Shown here in pieces: positions 3,061-60,759 of a DNA stretch of 64,000 bases. The translations under genes and the position numbers were made by a program. Location: assembly GCA_029339195.1 (NCBI GenBank), contig JAPTJF010000320.1:1-64000 (forward strand), in the 5' to 3' direction. Source of the stretch: Micractinium sp. NFX-FRZ. Taxonomy: Eukaryota; Chlorophyta; Trebouxiophyceae; Chlorellales; Chlorellaceae. Position 1 is the first letter of the stretch; the number at the start of each line of letters is the position of its first letter. A model generated the notes under the pieces. The model searched no databases and had not been told where the DNA came from. It saw only the letters and a program-made list of their open reading frames with translations.

Positions 3061-6000
3061 TCAAGCCAGGCCCGCCTTGGCCAGAGCCGCCGCCAGCAGC
3101 TCCTCGGTTTTAGCCCACAGCGCCTTGGCCATCTCGCCGTCCTGGCCCGCCTTGCTGGCGACCGCCACCTGGCAGTCCGCCAGGTAGGCGCCGCTGTGGC
3201 CCTCCAGCTCCGCTGCAGGAGTCGGGGTTGGGGGGCATGTGGGGTGAGGCAGGGTGGGGCACCTGATAGGGTGGGGTCACTTGAGGCGGGGCGGGGCCAG
3301 ACTGGTGAGGACTTGACTGAGAGGGGAGGGAGGAGGGGTGGCGGAAGGGCAGGCAAGGCAAGGCAAGGCGTGCACGAGGGAACTGGCGCCCCGGCAGCTG
3401 TCCCCCCCTGGCGTGTGCGGCCTGCCAAACACCAGCCAGGCAGCCCGCCTGGTGATGTGCAGGCGGAACGGCAGCGAACCCCAATCGCAACCCAGTCGCA
3501 GCCCCGGCGCCTGTTTGAAGGCAGCACACAGCCCCCTGCTCACCGGCGGTGGCTGCGTAGACCGAGGTAGCGGCGCCCTGTGGGACGGTCTTCATGAATG
3601 GGCCTGTGCCACAGGTGACAGGCACACGCAAACAAAAGCAATCCATCAGTGTCGTGGGGTGCATGGGCACGGCAGGGCAATAGAGGGCAGACCGGGCGCC
3701 GCAGGCGCTTGCACCCCAGCAGGCAAGCAAGCGAGCGGAAGGGCGCAGCAGGGCAGGCGGCACCCATGGCAGTACAGGTAGGCTACACAACACTTATGTA
3801 TCTGTACCGCTCACCCCCAAAAAGGTTGAGCAGGGCGGCAGAGAAGCCCATGTGCCGCTGCAGGTTGGTCTTGATCACGCCTGGGTGAAGTGGGGGGAGG
3901 GGGGGGCATGGGGTGCGGGCAAGAGGGGGGTGAGGTTGCGGGTAGGGTGGGAGGTGGGAGGTGTGCGGCTTTTTCGCATGCCGGGGTGCAGGGCGTGGTG
4001 GGACAGACGTCGCCGGTTTATGGCTCCTAAAACCTGACTCCAATGCAACAACAGGAACTCAAGGTAGCTGACGGGCCACCCAAGGGCTGCCCCAAGAGAA
4101 GGCTCACCCGGGTGCAGGGAGAACGCCTTGACGGGGCTGCCCTCCTCCGCCAGCTGGCGTGCCAGCTCAGCAGCAAACAGCACGTTGGCCAGCTTGGATT
4201 GGCCGTAGCTGCAGCCGGGGCACATGCAAAACACATACAGCTTCGGAAAGTGAGCAGCGGGCCAGGGTGCGGGTGGAGGCGGCTGCCAGCTTGGATCGGC
4301 AAACAGGTGTGCGGGGAGGCAGCGCACCGCTCCCACCCTCAAAGACCGCAGCGCCCGCTTGGGGCTGCGGGGCACTGCCATCCTTTCACAGCTGACTGCC
4401 CCAGGCGCTGTACTGCGCTCCTCAGAGTGCAGGACCCCCTGCATCAATCTTCCCACACTCTGCCTCTCACCCCCTTCTATTGCTGCCCTCTCACCCAACC
4501 GACACGCTGAACCTCTGCTCAAGACTCACCCCTCACCTGCCCCAGGCGCGGCACTGCTTGCCTGCCCCAGGCGCTGCACTGCTTGCCTGCCCCACACGCT
4601 GTACTGCTCACCTGCCCCACGCGCTGTACTTGCGCTTCTCGTAGTTCAGGTCCTCCAGGCCGATCACCCCAAACTTGTGGGCGGTGGAGGCGAGGGCCAC
4701 CACGCGGGCGGGGGTGCCCTGCGGGCGGGGCGGGGGTGGGAGGCCGAGTGCACAGATGGACGGTTGCGCTGGCTTGCCGCAAGTCAGATATACTAAGCAA
4801 GATGCTGCGCAACACTCAGCATTCAGCATCTCCAGGCCTGTGGGCGGTGGAGGAGAGGGACAGTACACGCCCCCCTGACTAGGATCAGCAGACACACCTA
4901 GGCCCCGCCCACACCCCTGACCCCGCCCATACCCCTGACTTTGGATCAGCAGACACACCTAGGTTGCCCTCCTCCCTCACGGCGCCCCGTATCCATACCC
5001 CCCACCCCCCACCCCAGCCCACCCCCTGTTGATTGCCACCCACCCACCTGCGCCTTCATCTTGGGCAGCAGCAGCTTGGTGAGATAGAAGTGGCCAAAGT
5101 GGTTGGTGCCGATCTGCAGGCCAGGTGACAAGGCTTTGCTCAAGAAACGTTGAGCTGTTGGAAACAGGAGAAGCTCAAGCTTGATGAGTAGAAGTGGCCA
5201 AAGTGGTTGGTGCCGATCTGCGGAGGGAGGGGAGGCGTAACAAGCATGTCAAAGCTGCTCTCGGCCTGCAGCGTTGGGCAGCCGCCGACACTTGCCTCAG
5301 CCGCCCGTCCCTATCACCACCGCACCCACCCACCACTTGCCTGCATCTCAAATCCGTTCTTGGTCGCCAGCTTGGGGCAGGCCATCACCCCGGCATTGAG
5401 TATCAGCAGGTCGAGGCGTGCCAGCTCAGCATCCAGCTCAGCACCCAGCGCCTTGACGCTCGCCAGGTCAGCAAGGTCCAGCTGCTTCACGCTGATCCTG
5501 CCCTGTGGGGAGCGGGCAGAGGTGGGGGGCAGGGGTGCGGGGCGAGGGTGGGGGCAGAGGTGGGGCCAGAGGTGGTGTGGAATGGTGTGTGTGAGTGTGT
5601 GCAGTGGGTGTCGTGGTGAGGCTAGTGTGCAGCCTGGGATGCAGACAAGAGCCCGCCTTGACCTCCTGCTGCGGCTGGTCCGCCACCGCCTGCCCCGCCT
5701 CCCATGCTGCGCCCTCTCTGAAAATTGCCCAACGCTCGAACCACCTTTTCAAATGCAGGCTCAAGCCCACCTTGACCTCAGGCTGCAGCTGGTCAGCCAC
5801 CGCCTGCCCCGCCTGCACGCTGCGTGAGCACAGCACGACGTCGGCACCCGCATGGGCCAGCGCCCGCACAGTCTCCACCCCGATGCCGCTGTTGCCGCCT
5901 GCAGCAGGCAGGGACAACCGCTTGTGGCTTTGCTCTACCGTTTTGGGCCAGCATGTGTGGCGGAGGCTGTTGGCAGCAAAGGCTGAGTGAGCAGACCGGC

Positions 6001-6237: not shown

Positions 6238-6498
6238 CTTTTGGGGGCCCTGGCGTGGTGCTTGTGCACTTTGCTTGTCCAAAGGGTGCCTCACTGAGAT
6301 CTCGAGTTTCCCGAGCGAGCCGATCAACGCGAACTGGCAAATTGCAGACCGTGCTGGAACCGTGCTGGGACACGTCGACCGCAATTGACGTGCTTCGCCT
6401 CCCGATCCCCAGGAGGCGCTGCATTCAAACCCTGACACCGCCGGACGTGGCGCCCTTCCCTCAGCTGCTCTAAGGCCTCCCAGCCGGCCATCGCCGCC
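6238..6498. promoter_or_regulatory. Bidirectional promoter region
   Basis: These 261 bases separate the start codons of the divergent SDR and cytochrome b5 reductase genes, so both promoters and 5' leaders must lie here unless non-coding first exons exist. No defined motif is claimed. Confidence 0.5.
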
Positions 6499-9400
6499 AT
6501 GGACTCGGCAGCAGCGAACTGGGCGGACCAAGCGGCGCTGATGGTCGTGCGCAACCTGCCGCAGGTGACATGGCGCGGCATTGATCAACTGGGGAAGCTG
6601 GGTAGCCGCGCCCCAGAGTTGTTGGCAGCCGCGGACCGCACACTGAAGAGGGGCCTGTCTGCAGCCCTTCTCCATTTCCTGGACGCCGCTCAAGAGCATG
6701 GGCAGTGCAAATTTTCATCCCGCTCTGGGTTCACCTGCCACACCCCTGCCGCCCGCCCACCCGCCCGCCCGTCGACTGGCCGCTGCGTGCTGGCCGCTGC
6801 CCGCGCCTGGCAGGAGAAGCGGTCTACTCCCGAAGCTCATGCAGGAAGCGCCCTGGTCAAAGTTGTGACTTTCAACTCCACGCACTAGCGCAACACGTTC
6901 CGAGGCCCCCCCGCTGCACTGCAGGCGCCACCACTGCCTCGGAGCGCTCTCCCTTCCCCTCAGCTTTCGCCCGCTCTGGAGGCTCCTCTTCACCTCCTCC
7001 CCTGACGCAGACCTCTTGCCCTTTCCCCTCTGCAGGCCCTTTTTGTGGTGCTGGTCGCGATTGTTGTGGGCCTCATTTTGAAGGACGCCATTAACGGCAT
7101 GGCCCGCCGCACCTTCCTGAACCCCGACGCCTGGCAGCCCCTCACACTGGTGAGTCTTTGTTGCTGGTCGATGCAGCAAGGGGGGAAATGGGGGGTGTGG
7201 GTATCAGTAGCATGCGCGTGGACAGACGCCAAGGCGCTGCAGCCGCAACGGCTGGCGGTACCGCCTGGCCCCATGACAGCCAACTGGACCCTGAGTCATA
7301 CAAACTTCAACTTGTGTGAAATCATTTTGTGTGATTCCAACTCGTGCTTTATTCAACTTGCGTGTGAATCCATCTCCCCCCACCCTCCCCCACCCGCCAG
7401 GTGGACATCAAGGAGCTGTCCCACAACAGCCGGCGGTACCGCTTTGCGCTGCCGCACCAGGAGCAGGCGCTGGGGCTGCCGCTGGGGCAGCACATCTCAA
7501 TCAAGGGGGTGGACGCAGAGGGGCGGGAAGTGATGAGGTGAGCCTCCCCGCTGCCCGGATGACCTGTTACAGAAGCCACCCCGGGTGGGGGAGAGCTGCA
7601 CGTGTGGGTGGGGACCGGCCCGGTTGCCTGTTCATAGCCACCCCAGGGGGGGTGGCAGCACAAGCCGTTCAGTGAGACGAGAGGGTCGGCGCGCAAGGCA
7701 GGCAGGCGCCCCGTCTGCCGGTTCTGCTGCTGCCAGCAGGCGGAAGGGAGGAGCCCTGCACGGAGTGGCTGCTGTGCCCACCGCACGCCATGTTCACCTC
7801 CACGTCCCCCTTGCCTCCCGCAGGCCCTACACCCCCACCTCCGAGATCGGCCAGCGGGGGCACGTGGATTTCGTGATCAAGCTGTACCCCGACGGCCAGA
7901 TGAGCCAGATCCTGGTGGGTGCTGCTGCAGCTGTGTTCTTTCCCTCTTCTTCTGCCTCTTCTTCCTCTTATCTTTCCACCGCTGATGATTGCTTCCGCTG
8001 TTTTGATTGATTCCTGGCATGGCTGTTGCTCCCCCCCTCCTCCTCCCCTGGCGCAGGCCAACATGGATGTGGGCGGCGTGCTGATGTTCAAGGGGCCCAA
8101 GGGGCGCTTCAAATACGAGCGCGCCTCCAAGAAGGCCATTGGTGCGCGCCTGCCTGCCTGGCTTTCTTTTCTTTTTCGGTGTGGGGTGGGTGGGGGAGCG
8201 AGAGCTTCGAGTGCAGCCCCCAAAAGGCCAGCCACGTGTGGCGCATATGTGTCTGTGTGTCTGCCCCCGTTTGTATCCTCTGTTCACACGCACATGTGCG
8301 AGGGCACTGCCAGTGTGCTGCTGGGACGCCCGCAGGTGCCGGCGTGGCACCCCCCGCCCGCCCGCCGGCCTAGCGCTGCTGGGTGTGTTCTGCACCTCTC
8401 ACCCCCTTGCTGCAGGCATGGGGGCGGGGTGCAGCGGCGTCACCCCCATGTCGCGGCTCAGTGCTGATGTGGGTGTGTCCCCTCAACTTCTTGCAGGCAT
8501 GGGGGCGGGCGGCAGCGGCATCACCCCCATCTTACGGCTTATCTGTTGTGTGTCCCCTCCCCCCCCCCCTTCTTGCAGGCATGGTGGCGGGCGGCAGCGG
8601 CATCACCCCCATGTTCCAGGTGGCGCAGCAAATCCTGCGGGACCCCAACGACACAACCGCACTCTCCCTGATCTATGCCAACGTCAACGGTGAGCGCAGC
8701 CTAGATGCTTCAGCCTTTCTGCGCGCTAGGGGCTGCCCTAGCCATTCTGCCCTAGCCATTCTGCGCGCCTCTTTCGGATTCATTCTCTTCAGCATCCGGC
8801 TGTGCCACGAGCCGCGCTGGCTGGTCGCGGCTCGCACAAAAGCGTGCTGTGCCGCCCCCCTCCCCCCTGCAGAGGACGACATCCTGACGAAAGCAATGCA
8901 AGCATGAATGCGTCTTGTGCTGCCCCCCTTGGTATGCAGAGGACGACATCCTGCTGCGCAAGGAGCTGGATGAGCTGGCGGCCTCACACCCCAACTTCCA
9001 GTGAGCCAGGCCCTTTATCATTCTTTCCATTGAGGATGCGGGGACCCGGGGGGCTTGTGGAGCGGGTGGGGAGGTGGTGGCAGAGGGTTGGCGGCGCTGG
9101 GATGTGTGGGACAGCCAAGGGGGTGGGCAGGTTGCCAGGCGCCGTCGAGGTCTTTCCTGCCTGCCCCTCTTTTTGCACACCTAACATCATGTTGGTCTCC
9201 ACCCCGCCCCCGCAGTGTGTACTACGTGCTGAACAACCCGCCCAAGGGGTGGCAGGGCGGCAAGGGCTTTGTGACCGCTGACATGATCAAGTGAGGCGGG
9301 CACACAGGCTGCCGCTGCTGCTGCTGCTGCTCTGCAGTGGGTGTGTGGTTGAGAGGAGTGGGGGGCGGCACGATGTGCATGGCTTTGTGGCCGCAGACGT

Positions 9401-9951
9401 GGTGAGTGAGCCGGCCGGGGCGGGCGGGCGTGGCAGCTGCTGCTTTGACCGATACAACGTGTTGCCTGCCTGAGTGTTGGGTGAGCTGGAGAGCAAACCC
9501 TGGCCGCACCCTGTTAGGTTCCCCTCCTTGCCCCGCCTGGAACCCTCTCCCCCCACCCCGCCTCTTGCTCCCCACCCCTCGCCCCGCCCCCGCCTCGCTG
9601 TCAACACGTGTCCCTCCGTGCTGGGTGCTGCGCTGCCTCTCCCCCGCCTCCCCACTCCCCCGCGTGTACAGCTCATCCCCCCTCCCCCTGTCTGCCTTCC
9701 TGCCCCGCAGGAAGCACCTGCCCGCGCCCGGCACCAAGGTCCTGGTGCTGCGCTGCCTCTCCCCCGCTTTACAAAACCCCGCATGTAAAGCACACCCCGC
9801 TCCCCCTGCCTGCCTGCCCCGCAGGAAGCACCTGCCCGCGCCCGGCACCGATGTCCTGGTGCTGCGCTGCGGGCCGGGCCCCATGAACAAAGCGGTTGAG
9901 GCGCACCTGGATGCCCTGGGCTACACCAACGGCCAGCAGTTCCAGTTCTGA
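6499..9951 (+). CDS. CBR1: NADH-cytochrome b5 reductase
   Basis: A membrane-anchored FAD flavoprotein that passes electrons from NADH to cytochrome b5 for lipid desaturation and related reactions at the ER or outer mitochondrial membrane. Exons: 6499-6704, 7011-7149, 7401-7537, 7824-7914, 8057-8141, 8579-8689, 8940-9000, 9216-9290, 9825-9951, giving 343 residues. A membrane span ([15 protein letters not shown]) is coded by exon 2. The FAD motif RPYTPT is near 161-166, the NADH-site motif [12 protein letters not shown] near 220-231, and CGPGPM near 317-322. The exon 2 start is the weak point: 7011 fits the phase, while 7036 has the better-looking acceptor but does not fit. Introns carry echoes of exons 6, 7, 8 and 9. 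Confidence 0.92.
8416..8618 (+). repeat. Triplicated head of b5 reductase exon 6
   Basis: Three copies of TTGCAG or CTGCAG plus about 38 exon bases begin at 8416, 8497 and 8579, 81 and 82 bp apart. Only the last is joined to the full exon. The first two decode as [12 protein letters not shown] and [11 protein letters not shown] and then diverge. The linkers differ much more than the exon-derived parts. Confidence 0.9.
8873..8955 (+). repeat. Duplicated head of b5 reductase exon 7
   Basis: The 14-base start of exon 7 (true copy at 8940) is repeated at 8873 directly after another TGCAG acceptor. The pyrimidine-rich tract before each is also similar. Confidence 0.8.
9378..9415 (+). repeat. Tail echo of b5 reductase exon 8
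   Basis: The stretch reading GFVAADV followed by GTGAGTGAG resembles the end of exon 8 (GFVTADMIK, donor GTGAGG at 9291) about 100 bp upstream. The copy is diverged but keeps a strong donor. Confidence 0.55.
9711..9875 (+). repeat. Duplicated head of b5 reductase exon 9
   Basis: CCCCGCAG plus about 46 bases of exon 9 occurs at 9711 and again at 9825, where it is joined to the full exon. The first copy differs at two codons (TKV for TDV) before diverging. A weaker third fragment lies near 9620-9650. Confidence 0.88.
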
Positions 9952-10873: not shown

Positions 10874-13047
10874 TCACGCGTCGGCGCCCGCAGGCGGCAC
10901 TGCCGCCGCCGCTGCCGCGTGCCCGCCGCGCCCGCGCCCGCGCCCCCGCCCAAACGGCACGCCCGCCAGCCCCCTGCCGCGCCCCCGCCCAAAGTGGATG
11001 ACGTCGGGCACTGAGCTGGTCTCTGCCGCCATGCTGAGGCGCGACATGCCGTGCAGCACCTCCTCGTGCGGTCCTGACGCTCCCTCTGCCCCCGTGGCTG
11101 CCGCCTGTCCCGCCTCAACACCCCCGGAAGCCGCGCCGGCGGCGCCGGCCTGGGCTGCCGCGGCTGCACTGGTCCCTGCTTCCGCCCCCCCCTCCGCCTC
11201 TGCCTCCATCGCCTGCCGCCCGTGGCCTCCCTTGCGGTACTGGGGCAGCGGCCGGATCTGGGCCTTGCGGCGCCTGCAGGGCAGGCAGGGGCACACGGGG
11301 GGAGGGCGCTTCTAATGTCAACACCCCATGATTGCGTGCCAGCACCCAAGCAACGGGTGCACGGGCCGGAGAGGGAGCTGCTGCCGCCCAGCAGAAACAG
11401 AAAGCATGCGGCAGCCACCTGAGGTGCCTGCGGTCGCAGTGGGAGCCCACGACAACTGCCCACCAACCCTTCCACAGCCAACTCAAAAGGCAATCTACTG
11501 CCCCAGCCGCACGTGGGGTCACCCGAATTGTATGCGGCGAAAGCGGAAAGCGCTGAGCAGAAGCCCTCAGCTCGGCATCCACCCAACTCCTGCGCACCAC
11601 GCACCACTCTCAACACGCGATCTATGTATGCCGGCGCGCACCTGAGGTGTATGCGGTCAAAGTGGAAGTTGCGGGGGAACTTGTGGTGGTCTGCTTGGGA
11701 GAGAGGGGAGGGGGTAACAACAGGTAGAGGGTGGGGGGTGGGGGTGGGGGGGTATAGTAGGAACTAGGGTGGGGGGAGCAGGCGCGGGGAGCACGCGCGA
11801 CAGGCAGGCACGCAGGCAGCGGACAGAGGGACGTGCGCGGCCATCGGTTGGTTGCCACAGAGCCGCTTGCCCCTCCCGCTACAGCTCTTCAACCAGCCCT
11901 TGCTCGACCTCAAAGGACTGCTCCGCCCGTCCCCAGCTGCCGCCCTGCCCCCTGCTCCCCGCTGCGTCTGCCATCGCCATCGCTGTCACAAATTCCTACA
12001 TTCAGGTGGCAGCCTGTGCTGCCACCTGTCCCCACCTGTCAGGTGCTGCTTCCGCTCCTCCACCGTGCAAAACTTGCGGGGGCATCCCTCCACCAGGCAG
12101 AGGTAGACCTGCAGGCATGCGGGGTGCCGGGGAGCACAGCAGCAAGAGAGTGGGAGAGTGGATTTGGGTGGGGGGTGTCACCTGGGTAGGGGAGGGCAGA
12201 GAGTGCGGGGTGGGGGCATGCTCCGCACCAGGCACAGGTGGCCCTGCCAAAGGAGGGAGCGCAGCACGGGCAGACAAGGGAGGGGTTGAGCGGGAGCGCT
12301 TGTGAGCTGTCAAAAGACAGCTCTCCAACAACACAAAACAAGATGGCACTCCCACCAATCATGAAGCCCCTCCCCTGCCCCAACAGGTGCAGGGTCTTAG
12401 GGTATACACGAGCAGCACCCACCGGCATGCGGCGCGCGGCCTGGGCCGCAAAGAAGCTGTCATGAAGCTCCGACACATGGAGCTCCAGCAGGCGCGCGGT
12501 GGGCAGCGCTGCATGGCACTGCTCGCACTCAAAGGCGCTGCCCAGCTTCCCTGCCACGTCAGCCACCCCTGCCAGCCCGGCTTCAGCTGCCAGCTGGCGC
12601 CGCTCGTCGCGCGCATGCGCCACCGCCGTCTGCAAAGGGCAGAAGGTGGAATGATGGTGCGAGCAGAATGTGGGACGGATGGGTTGCAACACGCTGCCAG
12701 GCATGGAGCACAAGCAGGCAGGCAGGTTGGCTGGCAACGCAGGGCCGCGCATGAGGGCTGATCTCAGCCAGCACCGGCAGCGACCCCACCCGCCCGCCTT
12801 GCCAGGTCCTCTCTTTTTTCCCTTTCCCGCCGCCCACCTGCCGTGCCAGCTGCTCCCTCTCTATGTTGCCCGCCTCGAAGAGAGCATTGTCTGGAGCCAG
12901 CCGCCGGCGGTGGCCGACGAAGACTGGGAACTCCCAGGAACCCTCGCCGCCGCCGACGGCCGCCTTGCCGCCAGCGCCGGCGGGCTCCGCCACCACGGCC
13001 GCTGCAGCTGCCAGGGCGTCGATGGGTGCTGTACCGTGCTGGCGCAT
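10874..13047 (-). CDS. ZNF511-like C2H2 zinc-finger protein
   Basis: Related to animal and plant ZNF511, a small conserved nuclear zinc-finger protein of unclear function. Five exons (13047-12838, 12629-12423, 12108-12036, 11690-11642, 11273-10874) close to 312 residues. The first finger has CEQC with the family signature HVSELHDSFF around residues 105-130. The second runs from YLCLVEGC to the HxxxH region (HHKF) and leads into the conserved FPRNFHFDR segment. The C-terminal third is Ala/Glu-rich and ends in an RGRGRG-type arginine-glycine tract, which suggests RNA or nucleic-acid contact. Intron 4 contains tail echoes of exon 4. It lies in the same orientation just downstream of the 82-residue gene, 94 bp from its stop. 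Confidence 0.85.
11415..11560 (-). repeat. Tail echoes of ZNF511-like exon 4
   Basis: The end of exon 4 (FDRIHL plus donor, about 11637-11672) is echoed at about 11418-11447 with an intact donor (CTCAG|GTGGCT on the minus strand), and more weakly at 11528-11552. The similarity is clear by eye but not exact. Confidence 0.65.
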
Positions 13048-13140
13048 TGCAGGCTGCTAGACGGGGGATGGCAGGTGCTGCTGTGTCAACCTAGCTGGCC
13101 GGCTACTCAGGGTGCAGCTTGGAGAAGAGAGCTTGCCCGC

Positions 13141-16536: not shown

Positions 16537-19500
16537 TTACCGTCCTACCGGACGCCCTGCTAGGTCCGGCACCTGCCCCAGCGTCGTCGCCGCCGTCGCC
16601 GCAGCTGCAGGCTTAGCTGTCGTTGCTGCCGTGCTGTTTGTCGTCCTTGCCGCCCTGGCTGCCCTGGCCGCCGCGATATGCTTGCCACGCGTGGCGGCCC
16701 ACGCCACAAGCTTCTGCAGGTCGATCACGCCATTTGACACCACCTTTCCCCTGAGCTGGGGCACATAGGCGGAGGTCTTGACGAGGCCGTCGGCGATCTG
16801 CACGAGAAGCAAACGAAGAGGCTTCAGTTGGCCAACATTGATAGCAAGTGCATGAGGCGGGATGGGCTGGAGGTGTGGGCGAGGGCGTCGGCGATCGGCG
16901 GGGGCGGGGAGGGGGCAGGTGGCGAAGGGCGTGCGGTTCGGTGAGCCTTTGGCCAGAGAGCCTGTGCTCGCGTGGTGGGGCGTCCGTGCATTGGTGTGCT
17001 GTCCCGCCCTGCCGTGCCGCCTCGCCTCACCTCGCCCCGCCTCACAGCGTTCAACGCCCCGCTCCCTCCCTGCCTCCCTGCCTCCCTCCTCCGCCTCACC
17101 TCTGCGTTGCTCAGCCGCCCCTGCGACGCCGCCAGGGCCATGGCTGCCGCCGCGCTGACAAAGGGGGCAGACATGGAAGTGCCGGTCTCAAAAGCATAGT
17201 ACTGGTTGCCGTACTCCGGGTAGATCCAGGTGGAAAGGATGTTTGACCCAGGCGCCGCCAGCTGGACCGTGGTGGCGCCATAGTTGCTGCACAAAGGGAG
17301 GCGGGGAGGGAGGGGAGGGCGGCGGTTGAGGAGGCGACAGGCACGGCGACAGACGCAGCGGCTGAGGCAGCGGGAAGCGGCGCGCAGAGGCGGGGAAGCG
17401 GATGGCTGGGGAGGTGGTGGGCGGGTGGGCGGGCGGATGAGCCAGCCGCAGGCGGGCGGTGCGCCCTGCCTGTCCCAAGCAGGCAGGCAGGCAGGCAGGC
17501 AGCGCGCAGGCAGGCGGAAGCAGGCAGGGTGGCAAGGGTTGCAGGTGGTGTCCCACTGGCCTGGGATGTGCCCTACTCTAGCGTGGGCCTAGCCTAGCCC
17601 TAGTCAAGCCAAGCCTGTCCCCAGGCACTGCGGATGAGCCTAGGCTAGAGGCAAGGCGAGAAGGGGCCGTGGCAGGGCCGGTGGCTGCTGACGCTCGCGC
17701 TGCCAGCCCCCGCTGGTGTGCGCCAGGGAGCACCCAGCAAGCACTCGGCACCCGTGCTGACGTGGCGCTCGCTCCCGCCGACGTGGCGCCCGCCTGGCCA
17801 TGCTGACGTGGCGCCTGCCCACCTGGAGGAGTGCAGGGTGTCGTCTGTGTTCATGTTGGCCACCGCCACGTTCCCCGGGAACTTGAAGCCGCCAGGATAA
17901 TAATTTTTGAGGTCGTTGTTGTTCCCTGCATTGCCCGCAGCCCTGCAGGACGTGGGCGAGGGAGAGAGTGGGTGGGGAATGTTGACACACGCACGCAGCG
18001 GCGGGGCGCAAGGTGGCTGCTCTCGCGCAGAAGAAGAATATGAGAAGATGATGCCTGGTGCAACACCCCCTGCGTGGGCCGCCCCACCATGCCTTGCCTT
18101 GCCTGACCTTGCCTGGCAATCACCCCTCGCCTTGGCAGCTCACACAATGCCACAGGCTTGACAAAGAGAAACGCAAGCGGCTGTTGCATTCCCATCGAGC
18201 GGGACCCTGAGCGACTGAACAGAAACCCTCCCTGGCAGAGGTGAGGCCTCGAGCCCCTCCTCCACCCCCAGGCCACCCGCCCTGCTGACACCCACCCACC
18301 AACACACCCACATCATTTGCATTTTGCATCATAGACAGCACGGCACCCCGCCTCCGCCACCAGCCCCCTTGCTCACCCCGCAAAGAAGACGCCCGCCGCC
18401 GTGCCGTTGCCGATTGCATCCTTCAGCGCCAGGTTCATCTCTTCCAGCACAAACGAGGTGTTAATAATGCGCGACCCCTTGGACCGGCAGAACTCGATGC
18501 ATTCAACAACCTTGGAGATGAGGCCCCAGCCGCCGGCGTCCAGCGCCTTGCAGGCCAGCAGCTTGGTGCGCCACGACGTGCCCGCTATGCCCCGCGCGTT
18601 GTTGGCCACCTGGCAGGAGGGCACGGAGCCAGGGGGTCCGCGGCGGGTTAGGGGGTGCAGTAACACAGCTGTTGTTGTAGTTGTAACACAGCTCAATTCA
18701 TGGGACTGCACAGGAGCATGTGGAAGTGCTTGCCACGCCCACAAGAGTCCACCAGAACCTCAACTGCCTGCCGCTCCGTTTATAGCAAGTTTCGTGGACA
18801 AGTTGCGCAAGGAACTTGCCGCGCCCGGCCACCCCTGCCACAGGCATCCCCTGCCCGCCCCACCCCCAACAGCACGCCTCAATCCGCTTGCTCTTGGTTT
18901 TGGTGCCGCAACTCGCAGCTCACCACGCCCTGTGTCCCTCCGCCGCACAGCATCCCCTGCCCGCCCCACCCTCAGCAGCAGCATGTTCCGTGCTGCGTGC
19001 TGCCTGGCTCTCCGCGCCCATGATCCCCGCCACATGCCTCCCGTGCCCGCCCCGCCCTCGGCAGCATCACGCCTTGCTTGGCATGCCTTGTGAGCTGTGG
19101 AGCTCAGCTCACCGCGCCCATGATCCCCGCCACATGCGTCCCGTGCCCGTTGTCGTCGTAATTGTCGTCCTGGAAGGCGGCGGGCATGGCCATCAGATTG
19201 CCCCGGAGGTCGGGGTGGTCCCACTGCGGGGGCGGGGTGGTCCCAATGCGGCGGGGCGGGAGCGCGGAGTCAGGAGTGCGGGCGGGGGATGCAGGGTGAG
19301 GGTGCGGGTGGGGATGCAGGGCGGGGCGGGGCGGGAGGAGACGAGGGGGAGGCGAGTGCGTACAAAGTGGTGGGCTGGGCAGCGCAGCAGAGGAGAGGTC
19401 CCACGGCGACCCCTGGAGGGTTATCCCCACTTAGTATTTGCAAGTGCTCCGGCCCTCACCGCACGCCAGCTCAGCTGCATGCCAGCACCATGAGGGGAGG

Positions 19501-35987: not shown

Positions 35988-36050
35988 CGTGCTAACGCTG
36001 TGGCTGCCTGTGGTGCTTGCTCCGCCCGTCTGTGCCTGTGTGGTTGTTTT

Positions 36051-36055
36051 TTACA
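36051..36055 (-). terminator. TGTAA-type polyadenylation signal
   Basis: TGTAA on the minus strand about 1.17 kb past the acetolactate synthase stop. The distance is long and the call tentative. Confidence 0.2.
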
Positions 36056-43200: not shown

Positions 43201-45769
43201 CGAGTCGAGCAGGGCGTCTGCCAGGCCGGTGACCAGGTTGGTGGCGCCGGGGCCGGAGGTGGCGATGCACACGCCCACCTTGCCGGTGACCTTGGCGTAC
43301 CCCTCGGCAGCAAAGATCTCGCCCTGCGCAGGGGGGAAGAGGTGTGGGAAAAAAATGGACTAGGTTGGATTACGAAAGCACATCGGCGACCTGGGCTGTG
43401 CCTTGGCATGCCCCTCGGCAGCAAAGATCTCGCCCGGTGGAGGGCAGGGGGAGCGGTGTTAAGGTTGTATGACACGAGCAGCACCCTTCCAACCACATTC
43501 TTTCTCACTCCAAACACAGCTCACCACACCCACCTGCTCGTGGCGGCACAGGATGTTGCGGTCGCTGCCAGTGCAGGCTCCCACCACACTCCCGTCTCAG
43601 TTTCTGCTTTGGAAAACACCTCGCCACACCCGCCCACCTGCTCGTGGCGGCACAGGATGTTGCGCACAGTCTCGGCGCAGCCAGTGTTTTCACCACACCC
43701 TCTTTCATTACGACCACCCCACTCACGCCCACCTGCTCGTGACGGCACAGGATGTTGCGCACGGTGTCGGAGCGGGTGAGCGCCTGGTGGATCTCCATCG
43801 AGGCGCCGCCGGGGTAGGCAAACAGAGTGTCCACGCCCTCCCGCTCCAGGGCCTGCGGTGGGCAGGGAAGGACAAGAGGACAGTGTCGGAAAGGAGGCAC
43901 AGGCTGTGGGCACCGAGGAAGGGGTAGGCGAGCAGAGTGTCCACGCCCTCACGCTCCAGGGCAGGTGGTCCAAAGGAGGCTCGTGTTGGCAGGGGCGGCA
44001 GGCAGGCAGGGGGGGTAGGCTGCGGCGACTGCGGCCAACAGGGGCCTGTTTGGTGCGACATGTGAGAGAGGAAGGGCCGAGTGGGTGGGGCGGCACCCCT
44101 GCGCTTGCACCAAGGTGCGCAGTCCACCACTGATGCTGCTGTGGGCTGGCTGGCTAGCTTCCTGCCCAGCTGCTGCTGGGGTAGCGTGCCACGCTCAGGA
44201 GCGTCACAGCCTGCTGTCGAGGGTCGCTGGGTTTGCCAGCTGGCCAGGCCGCGGTGCCCAGGCGGGCGCAGCTCCAAGCAGCTCCGACGCGCTCTGCCGC
44301 TCGCACAGGCGGCGCCAGAGGCCGGGAGGGCGCTTGCTGGCAGGCAGGTGACTCGGCTGGCTGGCTGGCTGGCTGGTTGGTCAAAAGTGCCAGCAAGGGG
44401 CCGCGCAAGTAGTCATGCTCTGCCCACAGCACGGCACTCACTGCCGCTGCGGGCCCAGCGGCGCTGCCCCCCACCCCTGCACGCCCAGCCGCTGCGCCAC
44501 GCAGCTCGCCAGCACGCCAGGCATTGCTTGCCACAATGCGTGGCTACTGCCTGTTGGCCTGCCTGAAACGCGCCTGTGACTGGCCCGCCGCTCTGCCTGG
44601 CTCCAGGCTGGTGCTGCTCCCGCTGAAGCAAGCCGCTGCCCAGGGCTCAGCTGCCATTTCCACCGCTGCCTGAGGTGCCTTCTCGAGAATCACCTCCCCC
44701 CCAGGCTTGGTGCTCCGCCTGTGCCGTGGCCGCATGGGGCGGCCACAGCATCTGCCGGCCACAGCAGCTGCGGGTTCCTGCCTTGCAAAGTCCCTCTCCC
44801 CGCAGCGCCCAGCGCTTGTGTGTTCACTCTATGCCCTCAATTGTGCTCACCCTATGCCCTCAATTGCGCTCACCCTATGCCCTCAATCGTGCTCACCCTA
44901 TGCCCTCAGTGGGCTCATAGTGTGTCCACCCCAGGCACCCCACGCAGCCTCCCACCTGCACCAGGATGTCGCTGCCCTTGCGGGGCTGGCCGTTGAAGCG
45001 GTCCACCCACTCCACCGGGGGCTCGGACGCCAGGGAGGCTGTGGCCGCCTGCCGCGCCGCCTCCAGCTGCAGGGGGTGAGCGAGGGGGAAGCCAGCAGGA
45101 AGTGGGCAGCCCGTGGGTGGACGCCAGCTGCAGTATTTGCCGCCCATACTTTAGGCCACTCTTGCTGGATTAGCAGCCACGACGCCCGGCCGCTGTCATC
45201 TTCACGCCAGTGGGCGGCTGTGGGTCGACATGCAGGGGCGATCACGCAGAGGCGTGGCCCCGCCGCCCCCGCTCCCGTCGCCGCCAAGTTGCCTGCATCA
45301 AAGCCCGCCCTTAACGCCTTTTCCTGCCGGTCCTCAGCAACCCACCTCATTGGCGCTGGCCTTGTTGACAGAGTCCTTGGCCATGGTGGCGCAGGTCTGC
45401 AGGGCGCCACGCTCCGGCCTGCAGGACAGTTCGAGCGCGCGCGGGAGAGGTGTGGTCGGCATGGCAGCGGCAGCGGCGGCGGCGGCGGCCAGGCAGCCAC
45501 CGCGGTGCCTGCGTCACCCAACCCCAGCGCTGGGCGCACCTGGAGCTCTGTCGGCGTTGTGGGATGCGGCTCGCTGCCAGCTGCGTCGGCAGGGGAGCCT
45601 GCAAACAGCGGAACAGGGCGCGTTCGGGTCGGAGGGACTGCAGCCAGCGGCGGCCAGCGGCATGCGCCCCCTCTACGGACTCGCGGCTCACCTTGGCTGA
45701 CCGGACCCCACGGGGAGCGGGTGCCGCGCTGCTGGTCGAGCAGGCGCTGGCCTGCATGGTGCTCGCCAT
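37221..45769 (-). CDS. ALS: Acetolactate synthase catalytic subunit, plastid
   Basis: Condenses pyruvate with pyruvate or 2-ketobutyrate, the first common step of Val, Leu and Ile synthesis. Nineteen exons (45769-45692, 45598-45540, 45418-45346, 45066-44956, 43852-43733, 43323-43120, 42626-42524, 42283-42156, 41834-41765, 41360-41260, 40893-40737, 40174-40068, 39832-39734, 39476-39402, 39046-38892, 38680-38581, 38213-38160, 37793-37681, 37374-37221) close to 686 residues. About 70 Ser/Ala/Arg-rich residues form a plastid transit peptide. [11 protein letters not shown] carries the catalytic Glu. The ThDP motif runs from DIDGDG to ILNNQYLGM. Herbicide-site residues are wild type at Pro199 (GQVPRK) and Trp581. 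The position of plant Ser653 is Gly (MIPGGGSF). At least a dozen echoes lie in its introns. Confidence 0.97.
38328..38512 (-). repeat. Two tail echoes of ALS exon 16
   Basis: The end of exon 16 ([11 protein letters not shown] to donor, ending at 38581) is echoed near 38450-38512 ([12 protein letters not shown], with a GTGGGT donor) and again near 38328-38384 ([12 protein letters not shown], decayed). The copies diverge progressively with distance. Confidence 0.8.
39236..39262 (-). repeat. Tail echo of ALS exon 14
   Basis: GTGGGCGGCGCAG|GTGCGG occurs here and at the true end of exon 14 (39402), about 164 bp apart. Confidence 0.75.
39646..39680 (-). repeat. Tail echo of ALS exon 13
   Basis: The minus strand reads CAGCGGGCCATCGAG then GTGAGG, against CAGTGGGCCATCGAG then GTGAGT at the true exon end (39734), about 83 bp away. 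Confidence 0.75.
40150..40502 (-). repeat. Four copies of the ALS exon 12 head
   Basis: The acceptor plus the exon start coding [10 protein letters not shown] is present four times. An internal landmark starts at 40159 (true exon), 40265, 40375 and 40481, at spacings of 106, 110 and 106 bp. Two of the three echoes keep CTGCAG and one has CTCCAG. The 20-35 exon-derived bases are almost identical in all copies, while the linkers are clearly related but much more diverged. A fragment near 40566-40590 may be a fifth copy. Confidence 0.93.
40976..41009 (-). repeat. Head echo of ALS exon 11
   Basis: CTGCAG plus the start of exon 11 (MLGMHGT) recurs about 106 bp upstream of the true exon start at 40893. 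At least 30 bases match with one or two differences. Confidence 0.85.
41990..42075 (-). repeat. Tail echoes of ALS exon 8
   Basis: The exon 8 end, [10 protein letters not shown] plus GTGGGGTGG (true end 42156), is echoed near 41990-42035 with one or more frame changes and an intact donor, and in a shorter fragment near 42036-42075. Confidence 0.7.
42601..42731 (-). repeat. Head echo of ALS exon 7
   Basis: The acceptor and first 30 bases of exon 7 (true copy 42601-42630) recur almost exactly at about 42699-42729, offset about 99 bp. Confidence 0.88.
42996..43141 (-). repeat. Tail echo of ALS exon 6
   Basis: The minus strand codes ETPIVK then GTGCGC at about 42998-43022, matching ETPIVE then GTGCGC at the true exon end (43120). 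Confidence 0.75.
43290..43435 (-). repeat. Head echo of ALS exon 6
   Basis: The start of exon 6 ([11 protein letters not shown], true copy 43290-43324) recurs at 43401-43435 as [11 protein letters not shown], offset 111 bp. The acceptor in the copy is lost (CCGG in place of CAGG). Confidence 0.88.
43529..43760 (-). repeat. Three tails of ALS exon 5
   Basis: The end of exon 5 coding NILCRHEQ plus GTGGG occurs at 43728-43760 (true), about 43631-43666 and about 43529-43560, all with intact donors, spaced about 100 bp. Confidence 0.92.
43811..43963 (-). repeat. Head echo of ALS exon 5
   Basis: The start of exon 5 ([14 protein letters not shown], 43811-43853) recurs at 43921-43963 with few changes, offset 110 bp. 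Exon 5 therefore has echoes on both sides. Confidence 0.9.
44831..44909. repeat. 23-bp tandem repeat in ALS intron 4
   Basis: Four units begin at 44831, 44854, 44877 and 44900 with consensus ATGCCCTCAATTGTGCTCACCCT. They lie close to the donor side of exon 4. Confidence 0.92.
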
Positions 45770-54016: not shown

Positions 54017-57000
54017 CTATACAGAACCATCGTCGAATTCCCAGCTGCGGGGGCAAAGGGAAGCGTGGGAGCAGTCGGGAGCATAGGCTGAGGCTCGAGG
54101 GAGGGCAGGGGGCACGGGGGGGCGGCACGCACATGTGGGCGTGGCGCCTCGCTGGCGCACTTGCCCACCGCAAACCTTCCAGCTGCAGCCCCGCATTTTC
54201 AAAGCACACAGTCAACCGACACCCCAGATCCCCACGCAATGTGGCTGAGAATCAATGTTGTTGTGACTCACCGCGTCTCCTTTGGTGACCTCCCCCGCAT
54301 GCGCGCGCAGTAGTCTGCGTCGCCGGGCGGCCGCCGCCGGTCCGTGTTGCTGGCCAGCATGCTGTGGTGCGGGCAGGGGAGGACAGAGGTGGGGGGATGG
54401 GAAGGCGTGAACGGTCCGCCAGCGCATGTTGCCCTCGGCATGCACAGCCGGGCATTGAGCAGTAGTAGCAATGGATGCAAAGACGCAAGAGTGCAGTGGT
54501 GGAGTGCCGGCCCACACCGAGCACTGCAGACCCCTGCGCCTTCCTCCAGGCGCCCACCTGCGCAGGCTTGGCGCCGCAGGACACCTGCCCCCGCCAGCTG
54601 AGGGGGGCTGCCCAGGGGGGCACGTGCATCCCCCACCCTGCCTCCCAGCCCACCTGCTCAGGCTGGGCGCAGCCCTGTTCACCACCACTGCCCCAATGTG
54701 CTGCCCACGCCCTATCCAACCCTGCCCAGAAGACGGGAGAATAATAGGGTCAGCCAGGGCCCAGCCCACCTGCGTAGGCTGAGCGCCACTTTGTTGATCG
54801 TCAGCGCGGGGCTCCACCCGCCGTTGTGCCCGTCATACCTGCAGGCGGGGCGGATGCGTGCGTGGTTGGGTGGGGGAGGGAAGAGCGCCGAGGGTGAGCA
54901 GGGGCCGGTGAAGAGCAGGGGGGTGCTAGCGTGAAGCAAGATGCAAGGGGCCAAGGGGAGTGGCTGAGCGGGTGGGGAGGGAGGGAGATTTGAGGGAGGA
55001 CTGGAGCAATGGAATCTGTGCCCAAGCAGCCTCATGGTACACTCTGTGAAAGCCCCCGCCCCAAGCTCACAGTATGTCCAGGCAGCTGTATGTGCTCACT
55101 GGATTAAAAGTGCGGGTGCAAAACTGAAGCAAAGCACTCAGCAACAGAATCACTCTCTGACCAGCTCACAGGATGTCCAGGCAGATGTGGCCGTTGGAGT
55201 AGATGTGGGGGTGCACTGGCGCGGGCGGCACAAACGTGACCTCCGGAGGCTCCAGCGGGTAGCGCTCGCTGAACAGGATGCGCAGGCGGAAGGTCTCGCC
55301 TGCGGGAGGGCAGGGGAAGGGGCAGCAGCGGAGGGAAGTGAGGTCTCGCCTGCGGGAGGGCGGTGCGCGATGGGGGCGGGAGGGACGGTGGGTGGCGCTC
55401 GACACAGCATGTACGCAGGTCAGGCGGACGGTCTTGCCTGCGGCAGGAACGGCGTGGAAGGGTGGGGGGCTGAAGAGGATATCAAGGGGATGGGAGAGAA
55501 GTGCCCTGGGCAGGGGAACCAAACCCGCCAATGAGCAGCAGCAAAACATGCGGCCCACGGGTCACAAGGCAGCGCTGCAGCCGCCAGAACAGGCAGCGCT
55601 GCAGCCGCCAGAGCAGCCACTCCAGTGACTCCGGTGCAGGCAAGGGAGACACCGCCTCCTTGCAGGCGCCTTGCTTGCGACCAGATCCACTGCTGCCTCC
55701 ACAATCTGGGCCACAACGGTGCAGCAGCGTCCTGCTCCAAAGTAGAGTGCGCTACAAGACCCATGCCCGTCCCACACCAAAGCGCCCCCCTCCTGCTGCA
55801 ACACCGCCTCTCACCTCCCTGCTTGCAGCACGCACATTGTCCCGCCGCCCCTGTGTACAACGACGGCAAGCAACCGTAACCAGCGGCAGCACCTGGCTCC
55901 CTAGCGTTACTACACAATGTCCCACCTCGCTGGATGCCCTGAACCCCCCGCACCTATGTACAGCTGCGGCGGGCAGGGGCTCTCCGGCCCTTGCAGCTCA
56001 ATCACCCACGTGTGCAGGTCATCGTACTGCACCAGGCGGCAGCCATCTGGTGGGTGCTGCAGCCAGTCGCGCAGCTCGCTCTGAACAGAGGTGGGGCGGC
56101 AGCGGGGAGGAGGGGGCAGCAGCGGGGGTGACGTGCCGCACGCGCTTGCATGCAGAGCGCAGCATGCATGCCTGTCTGTGGTAGATGGGAGCTCTACAGA
56201 ATTCAACAGTGCAGCAGCAGAAGCAGGGCAGAGCAGCTGGCTGCAGAGAAGGGAGCGGCGGGCAACGCAGGGGCACGTGGGCGGCGCGGGCGGCGGCGCG
56301 GCTTGGAGCCTCAATGTGGCCGTGGCGCCGGATCCAAGCAGCTTCTGCGACCCAAGACTACTGCACCGCTCGCCTGTATCCGCCGCTGCGCCACTGCCGT
56401 GGGTGTTCGGGACATACCCCCCGCGTTGTTCTGCTGAGCCCTGGCGCCTCGGACTAACGGAGGCTTGAAACGGGTCCAGGCCGGCGGAGACCTAAGCACC
56501 GCGATCAGCTCCTGGAGGGTCTCTTGCTCAGGCCAGAGCGGGCTTGAACCTTCGCAGACTACTTTGATGCGGGCTGCGAACAGAACAGTCAAAGGGAGCT
56601 CCGCGAAGGCAGCGCCCACCGCTCACCATTGGGCTCCCCGCCCGGGCGCGCCCTGGGCGGGGCAGCCAGCCTGGCCGGCCGGCAAAACCGGTGGCAGGCA
56701 GGCAAAGGCCAATTGTATTCAATTGTGCACCCCAGATCTTCAGACCCCTGCCAATGTCATTTTCTGACGAACAGCAGGCCCGCCACTTGACCAGCCATGT
56801 CGCAGCTCTTGCACGATCGGTGATTTTGGGTTGTGCCGACGGCTCTGGAGCATGGGGTGGCTGAGTTTGGAAGGATGGAATGGCACCAGATCTGTGCCGC
56901 CCCCTTCCTCGAGATACTGAATTCTGACGGCGCTCATCACCCTTGCTGCCCACTGGGGCGCAATGCCCGTCTCACCGGCACATCTGCATCTGACCTGCAG

Positions 57001-58494: not shown

Positions 58495-60759
58495 ATGTCA
58501 AGGCCAGGGCACGGCCGGGACCTCCGCAGCGGTGTAGCCCTATCTGCCTCCCGGGGGAGCACTGGCAGACTGGAGCGACTGGGGCGGGCAGTGCAGCGAT
58601 GGGTCGATGATCCGCACAGACAGTGAGGCCGCCAATGCGCCGCCCTTTGGCGCCGCTGCTTGCTGCCGCCGCCGCCACTGCCGCCGCCGGTCATGCCTGA
58701 TGCAACGGGCGCTGCTGTCAGCCCCCCATCCTGCCGCCCTCTCGTCCATGGCTGCCTGAGTTGCGGGGCAACCTCAGAATGTGCGCGGTTTCGCCTGCAG
58801 GGAGATGAATTTGAGGCTGGTGGAGCATGACCGCAAGGGCTGGCAGGTGGCGGCCGTCCTGACGGCTGCCGTGCTCACATTCAAAGTGTGGTTTCGAGAG
58901 GGGTTGCCAGGTAGGTGTGCCCCTACGAACGTGGCAAGGCATGCATGTGCGGCCAGCTTCCCAGCGAGGCATGATGAGGGCATGGGGTCAGCCGTGCGAG
59001 CGCTGGCGGCGCCTACCGCCGTGCCTGGCACGCCGCTGCCTGGGCGCAGCGAACGGGATGCTCCCACTCGCCAGCGCCGGCCCCTTGCCTGCGCTAGAAT
59101 GAAAGAAATGCGTCAAGTTTACGAACTGCTATGCTGTGCTTTAATGATGGTTGCCACAAGGAATAATGTGCCTGCAGGCCTGGCGCTGGCCTGCTCCGGA
59201 TCCGCCCTCTACATGGCCGGCATAGCGCTGCTGGCAGCACGCCACCCACGGCTGTATGCACGCAACCGCGAGGCCCTCAGCATCTCAGCCATGCTAGGCA
59301 ACTGCCTGGTAACACACGCCCTGGGTGAGCTCTGGGGTGGGGTGGGGTGGGGGACCGGCAGGGACCCTGGGGCCCCCAGTGGGTGTTTGGTTGGGGGGCA
59401 GGGGGCACCTGCCTGCCGTGTGGTCTCACAAGATGTCGCTCGCCAAGCCGTGCATTTCTGTGCCGCACCCGTCGCCACCAAGTGCCGCCTCCCACCTGAA
59501 ACCAGCCAATAGACTTGACGAGCCCATGCATGCGCAACCGCCGAGTTGCTGCACTCATGGCAGGCGGACGCTGCCTGCCCGCCTGCCGCCTGCCCGCCTG
59601 CCTGCCATTCCTCCCTGGGCCCTCCCCCAAACTGTGCATGACCCCCGCAGCTGCCCACGCCACAGAAGAGCAGGCATACCGTGTGCACGCGTGCAACACC
59701 GCTCCACCTCCGTGCCCCCTGTCTTATGCTTCGTTCTTGTGCTTGCCTCTTGTGCTTGCGTCTTGTGCTTTCCTTATTGTGCTGCTTTCTTGTGCCTCCC
59801 TCTTGTGCCTCCGCAGCCGCCCACGGCGGCACCAACCACTTCCTGTACCACCGCGACTCCGCCCTGCTGCTCCTGCTCATCTTTGCCTCCACCCATTACG
59901 CCTCGTGGATTTGCCTCTACATCTTGTACGGACGCGTCGGCTCGCTCTTGGCTGCGCTGGTGCTGCCGCTGGTGGCGCTGCTGCCGGTGAGGGCGGGCCG
60001 GCTGGACACACACCGGCAGCCCAGTGCGCCGTGCTGCCTGCTCCTGTCTGTAGGTGTGCGCCTGGCAGCTGAGCGCAGCTGGCGGTTTACAGCTTTTTAA
60101 AGTCCACCTGGGCTGCCTGCCTGCCCACCCACCCGCCCGCCTGCCCGACTGCCCCGCCCGCCTCTGCGGCATCTCCTCTGCCCGCCCACCCTGCTTCCCC
60201 ACCCGCCGCCCCTGCCCTCCTGCAGCAACTGGTGATGCCGGACGGCGGCTCCTGCGCCAAAGTGGTGGCGGCACCAGGCGTGGCTGCCACCCTGGACGAT
60301 CTGCACACAGTGCTGGCCCTGGTGCACTCGCCGCTGCTGGGCCCCACGGGCGCTGTGCTGGGCACGCTGCATGGGGTGCAGCAGGACGGCGGCAGGGATG
60401 CAGCGATGGGCATGCAGCAGTGCCGCATCATCGATTTGTGGCTGCTGGGCATGGCGGGCTATGTGGTGCCAGTCCTGGCGCTGCGTGTGATGGAACGCTC
60501 GGCACGGCGGGCGGCAGCAGCAGCAGCGGCGGCAGCGGCAGCAGCAGCCCAGCTCCAGCAGCAGCCGGGGGAGGCAGCGGAGCAGGCGGAGCAAGCGGAG
60601 CAGGCGGGTGGGCGGCGGGCGGCGCACAGCCAAATGGATGCGCTCCGGATTCGGCTGCAGCAGGGGCAATGGCAGTCGGAGACGGACGCCTTTTGGCTGC
60701 GGGTTGCCTACTTTGCCAGCTGTGCCGTGTGGGCCGCTGCCAGCTTACTGTCCTCGTGA
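58495..60759 (+). CDS. Multi-span membrane protein, paralogue A
   Basis: Unrecognised algal protein. Five exons (58495-58622, 58801-58910, 59178-59324, 59817-59986, 60226-60759) close to 362 residues. Exon 1 ends in a basic helix (LERLGRAVQRWVDDPHR). Spans include VAAVLTAAVLTFKVWF, LALACSGSALYMAGIALLA, LLLLLIFASTHYASWICLYIL and LLAALVLPLVALL, with a final hydrophobic end VAYFASCAVWAAASLL. Shared motifs with paralogue B are KGWQVAAVL, LALACSGS and HGGTNHFLYHRDSALLLLL. A long Ala-then-Glu/Gln linker precedes the C-terminal span. A possible poly(A) signal lies at 60877. A weak echo of exon 4 (AAHATEEQ after CCGCAG) lies near 59651. Confidence 0.72.

What the first reader, a model, noticed from the sequence alone, without database searches (positions are those of the whole stretch)
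3061..60759. Pervasive exon-edge echoes: introns filled with copies of neighbouring exon ends and their splice sites
Seen in sequence: in at least nine of fourteen genes (SDR, b5 reductase, ZNF511-like, subtilase, MsrA, ALS, sigma factor, E2, and weakly paralogue A) an intron holds one to three partial copies of the adjacent exon edge, almost always with the AG or GT of that junction. Heads sit upstream of the real acceptor, tails downstream of the real donor, at 25-130-bp spacing. The genes are unrelated, so this is a genome property. A neutral explanation is frequent short tandem duplication: only copies spanning a junction remain recognisable, because exon bases act as tracers. I know of the AGGT tandem-duplication model of intron gain, but this pattern lengthens existing introns and multiplies decoy splice sites. 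I am not aware of it being described as a systematic genome feature.
Basis: partly seen in the sequence, partly recalled or inferred. Interest (0 to 1): 0.9.

Follow-up and report, generated by a model that had tools for sequence, protein, structure and literature searches.

The report
Copied exon edges inside algal introns
In this green alga many introns carry decaying extra copies of the end of the neighbouring exon together with its splice site, most likely left by short local duplications that splicing tolerates, so introns grow and pick up strong-looking decoy splice sites.

Summary
I built gene models for the window plus 20 stretches of 10 kb, chosen by coordinate, of the same genome: 59 genes, 453 introns. 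Exon edges match their own intron at score >=28 in 40 of 450 (heads) and 42 of 451 (tails). Introns of other genes give 4 of 4500 and 4 of 4510, reverse complements 2 of 450 and 1 of 451. Echoes hold about 40 nt of exon plus a splice site, lie most often 80-140 nt from the real edge, and decay without visible constraint. Echo-free introns are also self-similar, most at short offsets. Best reading: pervasive short local duplication; copies crossing a junction survive where splicing keeps the exon-proximal site. Against it, intron-side homology is visible in only 25 of 56 pairs, and often missing where the exon part is at least 92% identical, so exon-echo gene conversion or a junction-specific copying process is not excluded. 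No RNA data and no relative's genome were available.

The parts
5178..5217 (-). Echo of the head of SDR exon 5048-5113 (copied exon bases 5073-5113), preceded by CGCAG, 104 nt from the real acceptor
   Evidence: 39 of 40 columns, score 70; no intron-side homology; intron matches only itself in the genome search
4839..4862 (-). Echo of part of SDR exon 4612-4718 (4676-4699), not reaching the junction
   Evidence: 22 of 24, D 163
4396..4439 (-). Tail echo of SDR exon 4612-4718
   Evidence: 37 of 44, D 217
4562..4605 (-). Two short-period (25 nt) tail copies at the same donor, part of TRF array 4536-4630
   Evidence: 17 of 19 and 18 of 19; TRF
8416..8533 (+). Two head echoes (8416-8472 and 8497-8533) of b5 reductase exon 8579-8689; the first was taken for a 57-nt exon by my gene finder
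   Evidence: TRF array 8402-8612 period 82; echo 8497-8533 is 35 of 37; the extra 19 residues are absent from PDB 2eix and from 5 algal homologues
9711..9756 (+). Head echo of b5 reductase exon 9825-9951, D 114, with intron-side homology
   Evidence: 44 of 46; intron-side score 49
12212..12239 (-). Head echo of ZNF511-like exon 12036-12108
   Evidence: 24 of 26 columns with 3 gap positions, D 135
16862..16895 (-). Head echo of subtilase exon 16537-16797
   Evidence: 28 of 33, D 98
23088..23336 (+). MsrA array: head echoes 23292-23336, 23180-23214 and a remnant 23088-23106 of exon 23418-23524
   Evidence: 40 of 45, 34 of 35, 18 of 19 at D 126, 238, 341; aligned
23597..23622 (+). Tail echo of MsrA exon 23418-23524 with GTGGG
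   Evidence: 22 of 25, D 97
40256..40496 (-). ALS array: three head echoes (40256-40280, 40358-40390, 40464-40496) of exon 40068-40174
   Evidence: 23 of 25, 32 of 33, 33 of 33 at D 106, 216, 322; fillers diverged
40959..40997 (-). Head echo of ALS exon 40737-40893 with TGCAG
   Evidence: 36 of 39, D 104
42691..42724 (-). Head echo of ALS exon 42524-42626 with TGCAG
   Evidence: 32 of 33, D 98; intron matches only itself in the genome search
43378..43434 (-). Head echo at the ALS acceptor near 43323, without AG
   Evidence: 49 of 56, D 111
43921..43962 (-). Head echo of ALS exon 43733-43852, without AG
   Evidence: 39 of 42, D 110
43534..43678 (-). Two tail echoes (43638-43678, 43534-43560) of ALS exon 43733-43852, both with GTGGG
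   Evidence: 37 of 41 and 26 of 27 at D 95, 199
42992..43020 (-). Repeat of the ALS sequence at 43109-43137; gene model exon 43003-43323 probably runs past the true donor into this tail echo
   Evidence: 29 nt at 90%, D 117; the plant ALS chain lacks the extra residues
49282..49316 (+). Head echo of sigma factor exon 49378-49491
   Evidence: 28 of 35, D 96
55071..55120 (-). Tail echo of E2 exon 55170-55299 with GTGAG
   Evidence: 37 of 46 columns with 4 gap positions, D 95

Best explanation
Short stretches of DNA are frequently duplicated next to themselves in the introns of this genome. When the duplicated block happens to cross a splice junction it carries a splice site and an exon edge into the intron. 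The message stays unchanged if splicing keeps using the exon-proximal site, so such copies are tolerated when they are far enough from the real site and carry too little exon to pass as an exon. They then decay without constraint; further duplication makes arrays. Each event lengthens the intron by roughly the spacing and adds a decoy splice site. Shown here: the copies, their register, the pyrimidine tract and AG before head echoes, the neutral-looking decay, the association with intron length. Inferred: the tandem origin of pairs without intron-side homology, the splicing filter on spacing and exon depth, and whatever keeps the exon-derived part more alike than the intron part.
For: Own-intron excess about 100-fold over other introns. 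Pyrimidine content before echo acceptors 0.76 (n=30), as before real ones (0.73), against 0.49 before random YAG in introns (n=2982), p 3e-16. Intron-side homology above the 95th percentile of controls in 25 of 56 pairs, with similar spacing (median 113 against 107) and exon depth (40 against 39) to the other 31 and more similar exon parts (0.90 against 0.84). Introns with more copies are longer, though long introns also offer more room. Mismatches 121 of 928, 109 of 936, 122 of 919 at codon positions 1-3; AG 25 of 33 against 26.3 expected, GT 20 of 30 against 22.3. Echo-free introns are self-similar beyond local shuffles: 33, 23, 13, 15, 9 of 97 at offsets 40-75, 75-110, 110-145, 145-180, 180-215, 4.9 expected each, the last not significant (p 0.054). 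A roughly 50-bp duplication is present in one and absent from the other of two recent paralogues. No repeat family seen: three echo introns match only themselves in the genome search.
Against: Of pairs whose exon part is at least 92% identical, 9 of 18 show no intron-side homology by each of two scorings, and by ungapped matching the intron parts alone are recognised in only 1 of 17 (5 of 57 overall); decay of a full tandem copy would leave them recognisable. By ungapped search at offsets 60-160 there are 55 exon-edge pairs but only 4 interior pairs in echo-free introns and 6 intergenic, although simulated interior copies are found about as well as edge copies at low divergence. Echo rates differ among genes more than chance (permutation p 0.0045, 43 genes). 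No RNA data show which site is used.
Confidence: 0.6

Rival explanations
1. Tandem duplication made the copies, but the exon-derived part is kept alike by gene conversion with the exon (or with its message), while the low-complexity intron part escapes conversion and erodes. Echoes are then older than they look.
For: Exon part conserved while filler is eroded: in the ALS array exon parts (25 nt compared) are at 0.92-0.96 and fillers at 0.67-0.77 (unrelated 3' intron ends 0.63 on average, 0.73 at the 99th percentile). Light-harvesting tandem paralogues in the same genome have mostly near-identical exons beside introns ranging from near-identical to unalignable with sharp borders, and one paralogue precisely lacks a 162-nt intron; in another pair one 103-bp exon is 100% identical while the five other matching pieces are 86-93%.
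Against: Conversion should also keep intron parts alike at first. In the MsrA array a complex intron stretch next to the exon part is conserved too and only the simple AC-rich stretch is eroded, which fits fast indel turnover of simple sequence. No outgroup to date any copy.
Confidence: 0.2
2. A junction-specific process copies only the exon edge with its splice site to a spot about 100 nt away; the filler was never duplicated. It might be tied to transcription or splicing, for instance strand breaks at the G-rich 5' and C-rich 3' intron ends, or copying from RNA.
For: Sharp edges with unrelated filler; exon depth centred on about 40 nt, only 9 of 109 echoes deeper than 61 nt although 90 nt were offered; 55 edge pairs against 4 interior pairs in echo-free introns and 6 intergenic pairs at 60-160 nt; introns G-rich at the 5' end (0.45) and C-rich at the 3' end (0.46).
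Against: 25 of 56 pairs do show intron-side homology. Pyrimidine tracts precede head echoes. Gap-tolerant comparison finds excess self-similarity in echo-free introns too.
Confidence: 0.15
3. The echoes are functional: kept by selection as decoys or splicing enhancers.
For: Echo acceptors that keep AG score like real ones (7.9 against 8.3, n=28).
Against: AG and GT are lost at the rate of the exon part; mismatches are even over codon positions; all echo sites taken together are weaker than the real ones (real better in 30 of 41 acceptors and 26 of 41 donors); they occur in 29 of 57 multi-exon genes.
Confidence: 0.04
4. Artefact of gene models or assembly.
For: My gene finder took echoes for coding sequence at least twice.
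Against: Those cases are repeats in the DNA itself and the homologues show which copy is the exon; echoes occur in conserved genes confirmed by protein homology; shuffles, other introns and wrong-side introns do not give them.
Confidence: 0.01

Closest known systems
Duplication crossing an intron-exon boundary in a potato RdRp gene (PMC4974935; passages seen, including most of the abstract)
   Same: A tandem duplication crosses the intron-exon boundary; branch site, pyrimidine tract and 3' splice site are inherited from the parental junction.
   Different: There it created a new intron and an inserted exon in one gene; here the copied exon piece is apparently left in the intron and the pattern recurs in about a fifth of introns.
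[quoted passage not shown] as described in PMC4974935 passages, originals not read)
   Same: Short tandem duplication generating extra splice sites without changing the protein.
   Different: Acts on an exonic AGGT and makes a new intron whose start copies the next exon; here head echoes sit inside longer introns behind a pyrimidine tract and AG, and existing introns grow.
Intron gain by tandem duplication in Drosophila (PMC2891723; passages seen, including part of the abstract)
   Same: Regional tandem duplication invoked for changes of intron structure.
   Different: Novel intron positions, a handful of cases; no systematic exon-edge copies in the passages seen.
Introner elements (PMC3488318; passages seen)
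   Same: Recurrent sequence within introns in a green alga.
   Different: Introners are a repeat family; here each copy is local and, where searched, unique.

Membership tests
Tandem (head-to-tail) duplication | Both the exon-side and the intron-side part of the block are repeated | tested here: inconclusive
   Exon side by selection; intron side above the 95th control percentile in 25 of 56 pairs, by ungapped match in 5 of 57
Duplication crossing an intron-exon boundary (potato RdRp type) | Copy carries the parental pyrimidine tract and 3' splice site | tested here: met
   Pyrimidine fraction 0.76 against 0.73 real and 0.49 random; AG in 25 of 33
Duplication crossing an intron-exon boundary (potato RdRp type) | New intron and inserted exon appear in the message | not testable with these tools
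   No RNA data; use of a retained echo site would shift frame or hit a stop in 48 of 55
AGGT intron-gain model | Head echo starts at the beginning of the intron, so that spacing equals intron length | tested here: not met
   Spacing medians 107-113, while introns with one or more echoes have medians of 317-557 nt; compared as medians, not intron by intron
Introner elements | Similar sequence in many introns of the genome | tested here: not met
   3 of 3 echo introns searched matched only themselves; the search skips simple and very common words

The most novel reading that the evidence does not exclude
Splice junctions in this lineage are specific targets of a copying process: a piece of about 40 nt of exon edge plus its splice site is repeatedly re-copied or re-converted from the exon into the adjoining intron about 100 nt away, independently of the surrounding intron sequence, perhaps from RNA or through breaks at the G-rich and C-rich intron ends. 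Introns would then grow by a junction-centred mechanism not among the recognised ones.
Probability: 0.2. Interest if true: 0.8.

Novelty: new variant of a known kind. Interest (0 to 1): 0.5.

Why it matters
It gives a concrete, countable route by which existing introns lengthen and acquire decoy splice sites, at a frequency high enough to study within one genome. Copies that keep their AG score nearly as well as the real acceptors, so the genome poses many natural tests of how the spliceosome picks the right one of two near-identical sites, and the decoys mislead gene annotation. If the exon-derived part is actively kept alike, it would also show very short-range gene conversion.

Tried and rejected
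A repeat family (introner) in the fillers: rejected for the three introns searched, only self matches; of 18 young fillers compared with 2 kb either side, 10 had no same-strand match above score 29 and the best reverse-strand scores were 16-30, without a control. A coding or selected role of echoes: mismatches even over codon positions, AG/GT decay as expected. A gradient of conservation away from the junction: proximal 100 against distal 143 mismatches, p 0.007, not used because requiring alignments to begin at the junction biases it. A junction-specific excess over interior copies looked decisive and after correction, but one search showed that intron parts are hardly recognisable even beside an echo, so the excess cannot be taken at face value. 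Codon bias as a proxy of expression: rho 0.30, p 0.054 over 43 genes, inconclusive. More light-harvesting paralogues to catch an echo being gained: most of their introns do not align; 4 of 50 introns there have an echo at score >=26, all four tail echoes, none in L042, the pair with alignable introns.

Error corrected: the complexity filter penalised long matches; one search exposed it (identical copies mostly missed), one search uses a repaired filter, and and the AG/GT counts apply it to the echo lists (109 hits pass at score 28 against 99 before; 15 of them had been dropped). Counts quoted and the coordinates are with the old filter, which drops some long echoes and keeps a few that the new one drops.

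Literature: ten searches listed no genome-wide description by title or abstract; passages or abstract were seen of seven papers. I have a vague, unverified recollection that a Chlorella genome paper mentions repeats of adjacent coding sequence in introns; the Chlorella variabilis paper is not held.
Full report
WHAT WAS DONE. The window is contig 320 of a 66-Mb genome of 838 contigs with no relatives held. Its b5 reductase is closest to an unnamed 288-aa sequence (82%) and to Micractinium conductrix (81%); Chlorella vulgaris is at 69%. The source is inferred to be a Chlorellaceae alga near Micractinium. I fetched 20 stretches of 10 kb from contigs C1-C10 at fixed coordinates and wrote a gene finder trained on these and the window. 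Six window proteins were scanned against Pfam: SDR, b5 reductase, ALS, E2 and sigma factor pass curated cut-offs, MsrA falls just below (20.8 against 23.7 bits).

IS IT MORE THAN CHANCE. Yes. Exon heads hit their own intron at score 28 or more in 40 of 450 cases, tails in 42 of 451; length-matched introns of other genes give 4 of 4500 and 4 of 4510, reverse complements 2 of 450 and 1 of 451, dinucleotide shuffles 2 of 2250 and 3 of 2255, and the intron on the wrong side of the same exon 3 of 395 and 0 of 395. In the window alone 30 of 208 edges against 5 of 4160. With a repaired complexity filter 81 of 453 introns carry an echo, 28 of 104 in the window and 53 of 349 elsewhere, in 29 of 57 multi-exon genes. 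Genes differ: SDR 4 of 8 introns, ALS 9 of 20, b5 reductase 4 of 9, several genes none; permutation p 0.0045; echo fraction correlates with median intron length (rho 0.44, p 0.003).

ANATOMY. Echoes reach into the exon to a median depth of 41 nt (53 heads) and 39 nt (56 tails); 9 of 109 are deeper than 61 nt although up to 90 nt were offered. Spacing is 80-140 nt in 32 of 53 heads and 28 of 56 tails; spread evenly over the introns, about 13 of 45 would fall there. Before echo acceptors the pyrimidine fraction is 0.76 against 0.73 at real acceptors and 0.49 at random YAG, so the tract was copied with the AG. Of 25 junction-anchored tail echoes 13 continue GTGGG or GTGAG. Copies per intron: 62 introns with one, 12 with two, 7 with three or more; examples of arrays are ALS 40175-40736, MsrA 22932-23417 and the two b5 reductase introns before 8579 and 9825. 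Median intron length is 249, 317, 414.5 and 557 nt with 0, 1, 2 and 3 or more copies, n 372, 62, 12, 7; longer introns also offer more room for hits.

DECAY AND DECOYS. Mismatches between exon and echo are even over codon positions: 0.130, 0.116, 0.133. AG is kept in 25 of 33 and GT in 20 of 30, as expected from each echo's identity (26.3 and 22.3) and far above the background of about 5.5%. Over all echoes the real site scores better in 30 of 41 acceptors and 26 of 41 donors. Among those that keep AG or GT the difference is small: acceptors 7.9 against 8.3, real better in 17 of 28; donors 5.4 against 6.5, real better in 9 of 24. Of 55 usable echo sites 48 would shift the frame or hit a stop, 7 would not. 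The gene finder was misled: a 57-nt echo at 8416-8472 was called an exon, but its 19 residues are absent from PDB 2eix and from five algal homologues; in ALS the exon 43003-43323 appears to run past its true donor into a tail echo.

WHICH DUPLICATION. Intron-side stretches next to echo and real edge are alike beyond the 95th control percentile in 25 of 56 pairs; the two classes share spacing and exon depth, and the homologous class has the more similar exon parts (0.90 against 0.84), which suggests one process of different ages. But among pairs with exon part at least 92% identical 9 of 18 show no intron-side homology by each of two scorings, edges are sharp, and three introns searched match nothing else in the genome. 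Some intron parts are plainly homologous but broken by indels in pyrimidine-rich sequence (L024 9017-9439), and in MsrA a complex intron stretch is conserved while a simple one is eroded, so fast indel turnover of simple intron sequence is part of the answer. Ungapped search at offsets 60-160 gave 55 exon-edge pairs (23 at 92% or more), 18 interior pairs in echo introns (10), 4 in echo-free introns (0), 6 intergenic (2), 5 exon-exon (0); a far-offset control gave 3 pairs against 151 over all classes and offsets. Simulated interior copies were found about as well as edge copies at low divergence and less well at high divergence. Since the intron parts of the edge pairs themselves are recognised in only 5 of 57, interior copies may be largely invisible, and the excess does not prove a junction-specific process. 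Gap-tolerant comparison does find excess self-similarity in echo-free introns: 33 of 201 against 10.1 expected with other introns as control, 36 of 212 against 10.6 with local shuffles, falling with offset and no longer significant at 180-215. Shared local composition may contribute. Junction echoes lack the short spacings that are commonest inside introns; I infer that close copies are removed because they capture splicing.

PARALOGUES. Two tandem light-harvesting genes in L042 have near-identical sequence in most of their exons (the first ones are diverged) while introns range from near-identical to unalignable, with sharp borders; one gene precisely lacks a 162-nt intron of the other, and one intron holds a roughly 50-bp tandem copy absent from the other (read by eye). 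In L041 one 103-bp exon is 100% identical and the five other matching pieces 86-93%. So strong contrast between exon and intron similarity occurs elsewhere in this genome too, and patchy gene conversion is likely (inference).

VERDICT. A single case of duplication across an intron-exon boundary is in print (PMC4974935, passages); the systematic form was not seen in the listings of ten searches of an open-licence library. Novelty: a new variant of a known kind.

Noticed in passing
introns of at least 240 nt in the window and L009-L028: Introns are compositionally mirrored: G-rich at the 5' end (G 0.45, GGG 77 per kb) and C-rich at the 3' end (C 0.46, CCC 107 per kb), fading over about 100 nt; the ends could pair with each other in RNA.
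   Followed up: partly
L042 1408-1569 against 4500-4650: Recent tandem light-harvesting paralogues differ by the precise presence or absence of a 162-nt intron between near-identical exons, which looks like intron loss through a message copy or a recent gain.
   Followed up: partly
L043 against L041: Light-harvesting paralogues appear to differ in intron number: one exon of an L041 gene (L041 756-1016) matches pieces of L043 separated by three gaps of intron size.
   Followed up: no
L041 1233-1335 and 5374-5476: One 103-bp exon is 100% identical between two paralogues whose five other matching pieces are 86-93% identical and whose introns mostly do not align.
   Followed up: no
predicted introns of the window and L009-L028: About 7% of donors in the trained model are GC rather than GT.
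   Followed up: no
window 61235-61714: Intergenic 64-bp minisatellite in two blocks, followed by an AAACCCTA array at 61958-62002 that resembles telomere repeat.
   Followed up: no
window 4536-4630: 25-bp tandem array at a donor of the SDR gene in which units repeat the exon end and a GC-type donor, so the true donor is ambiguous.
   Followed up: no
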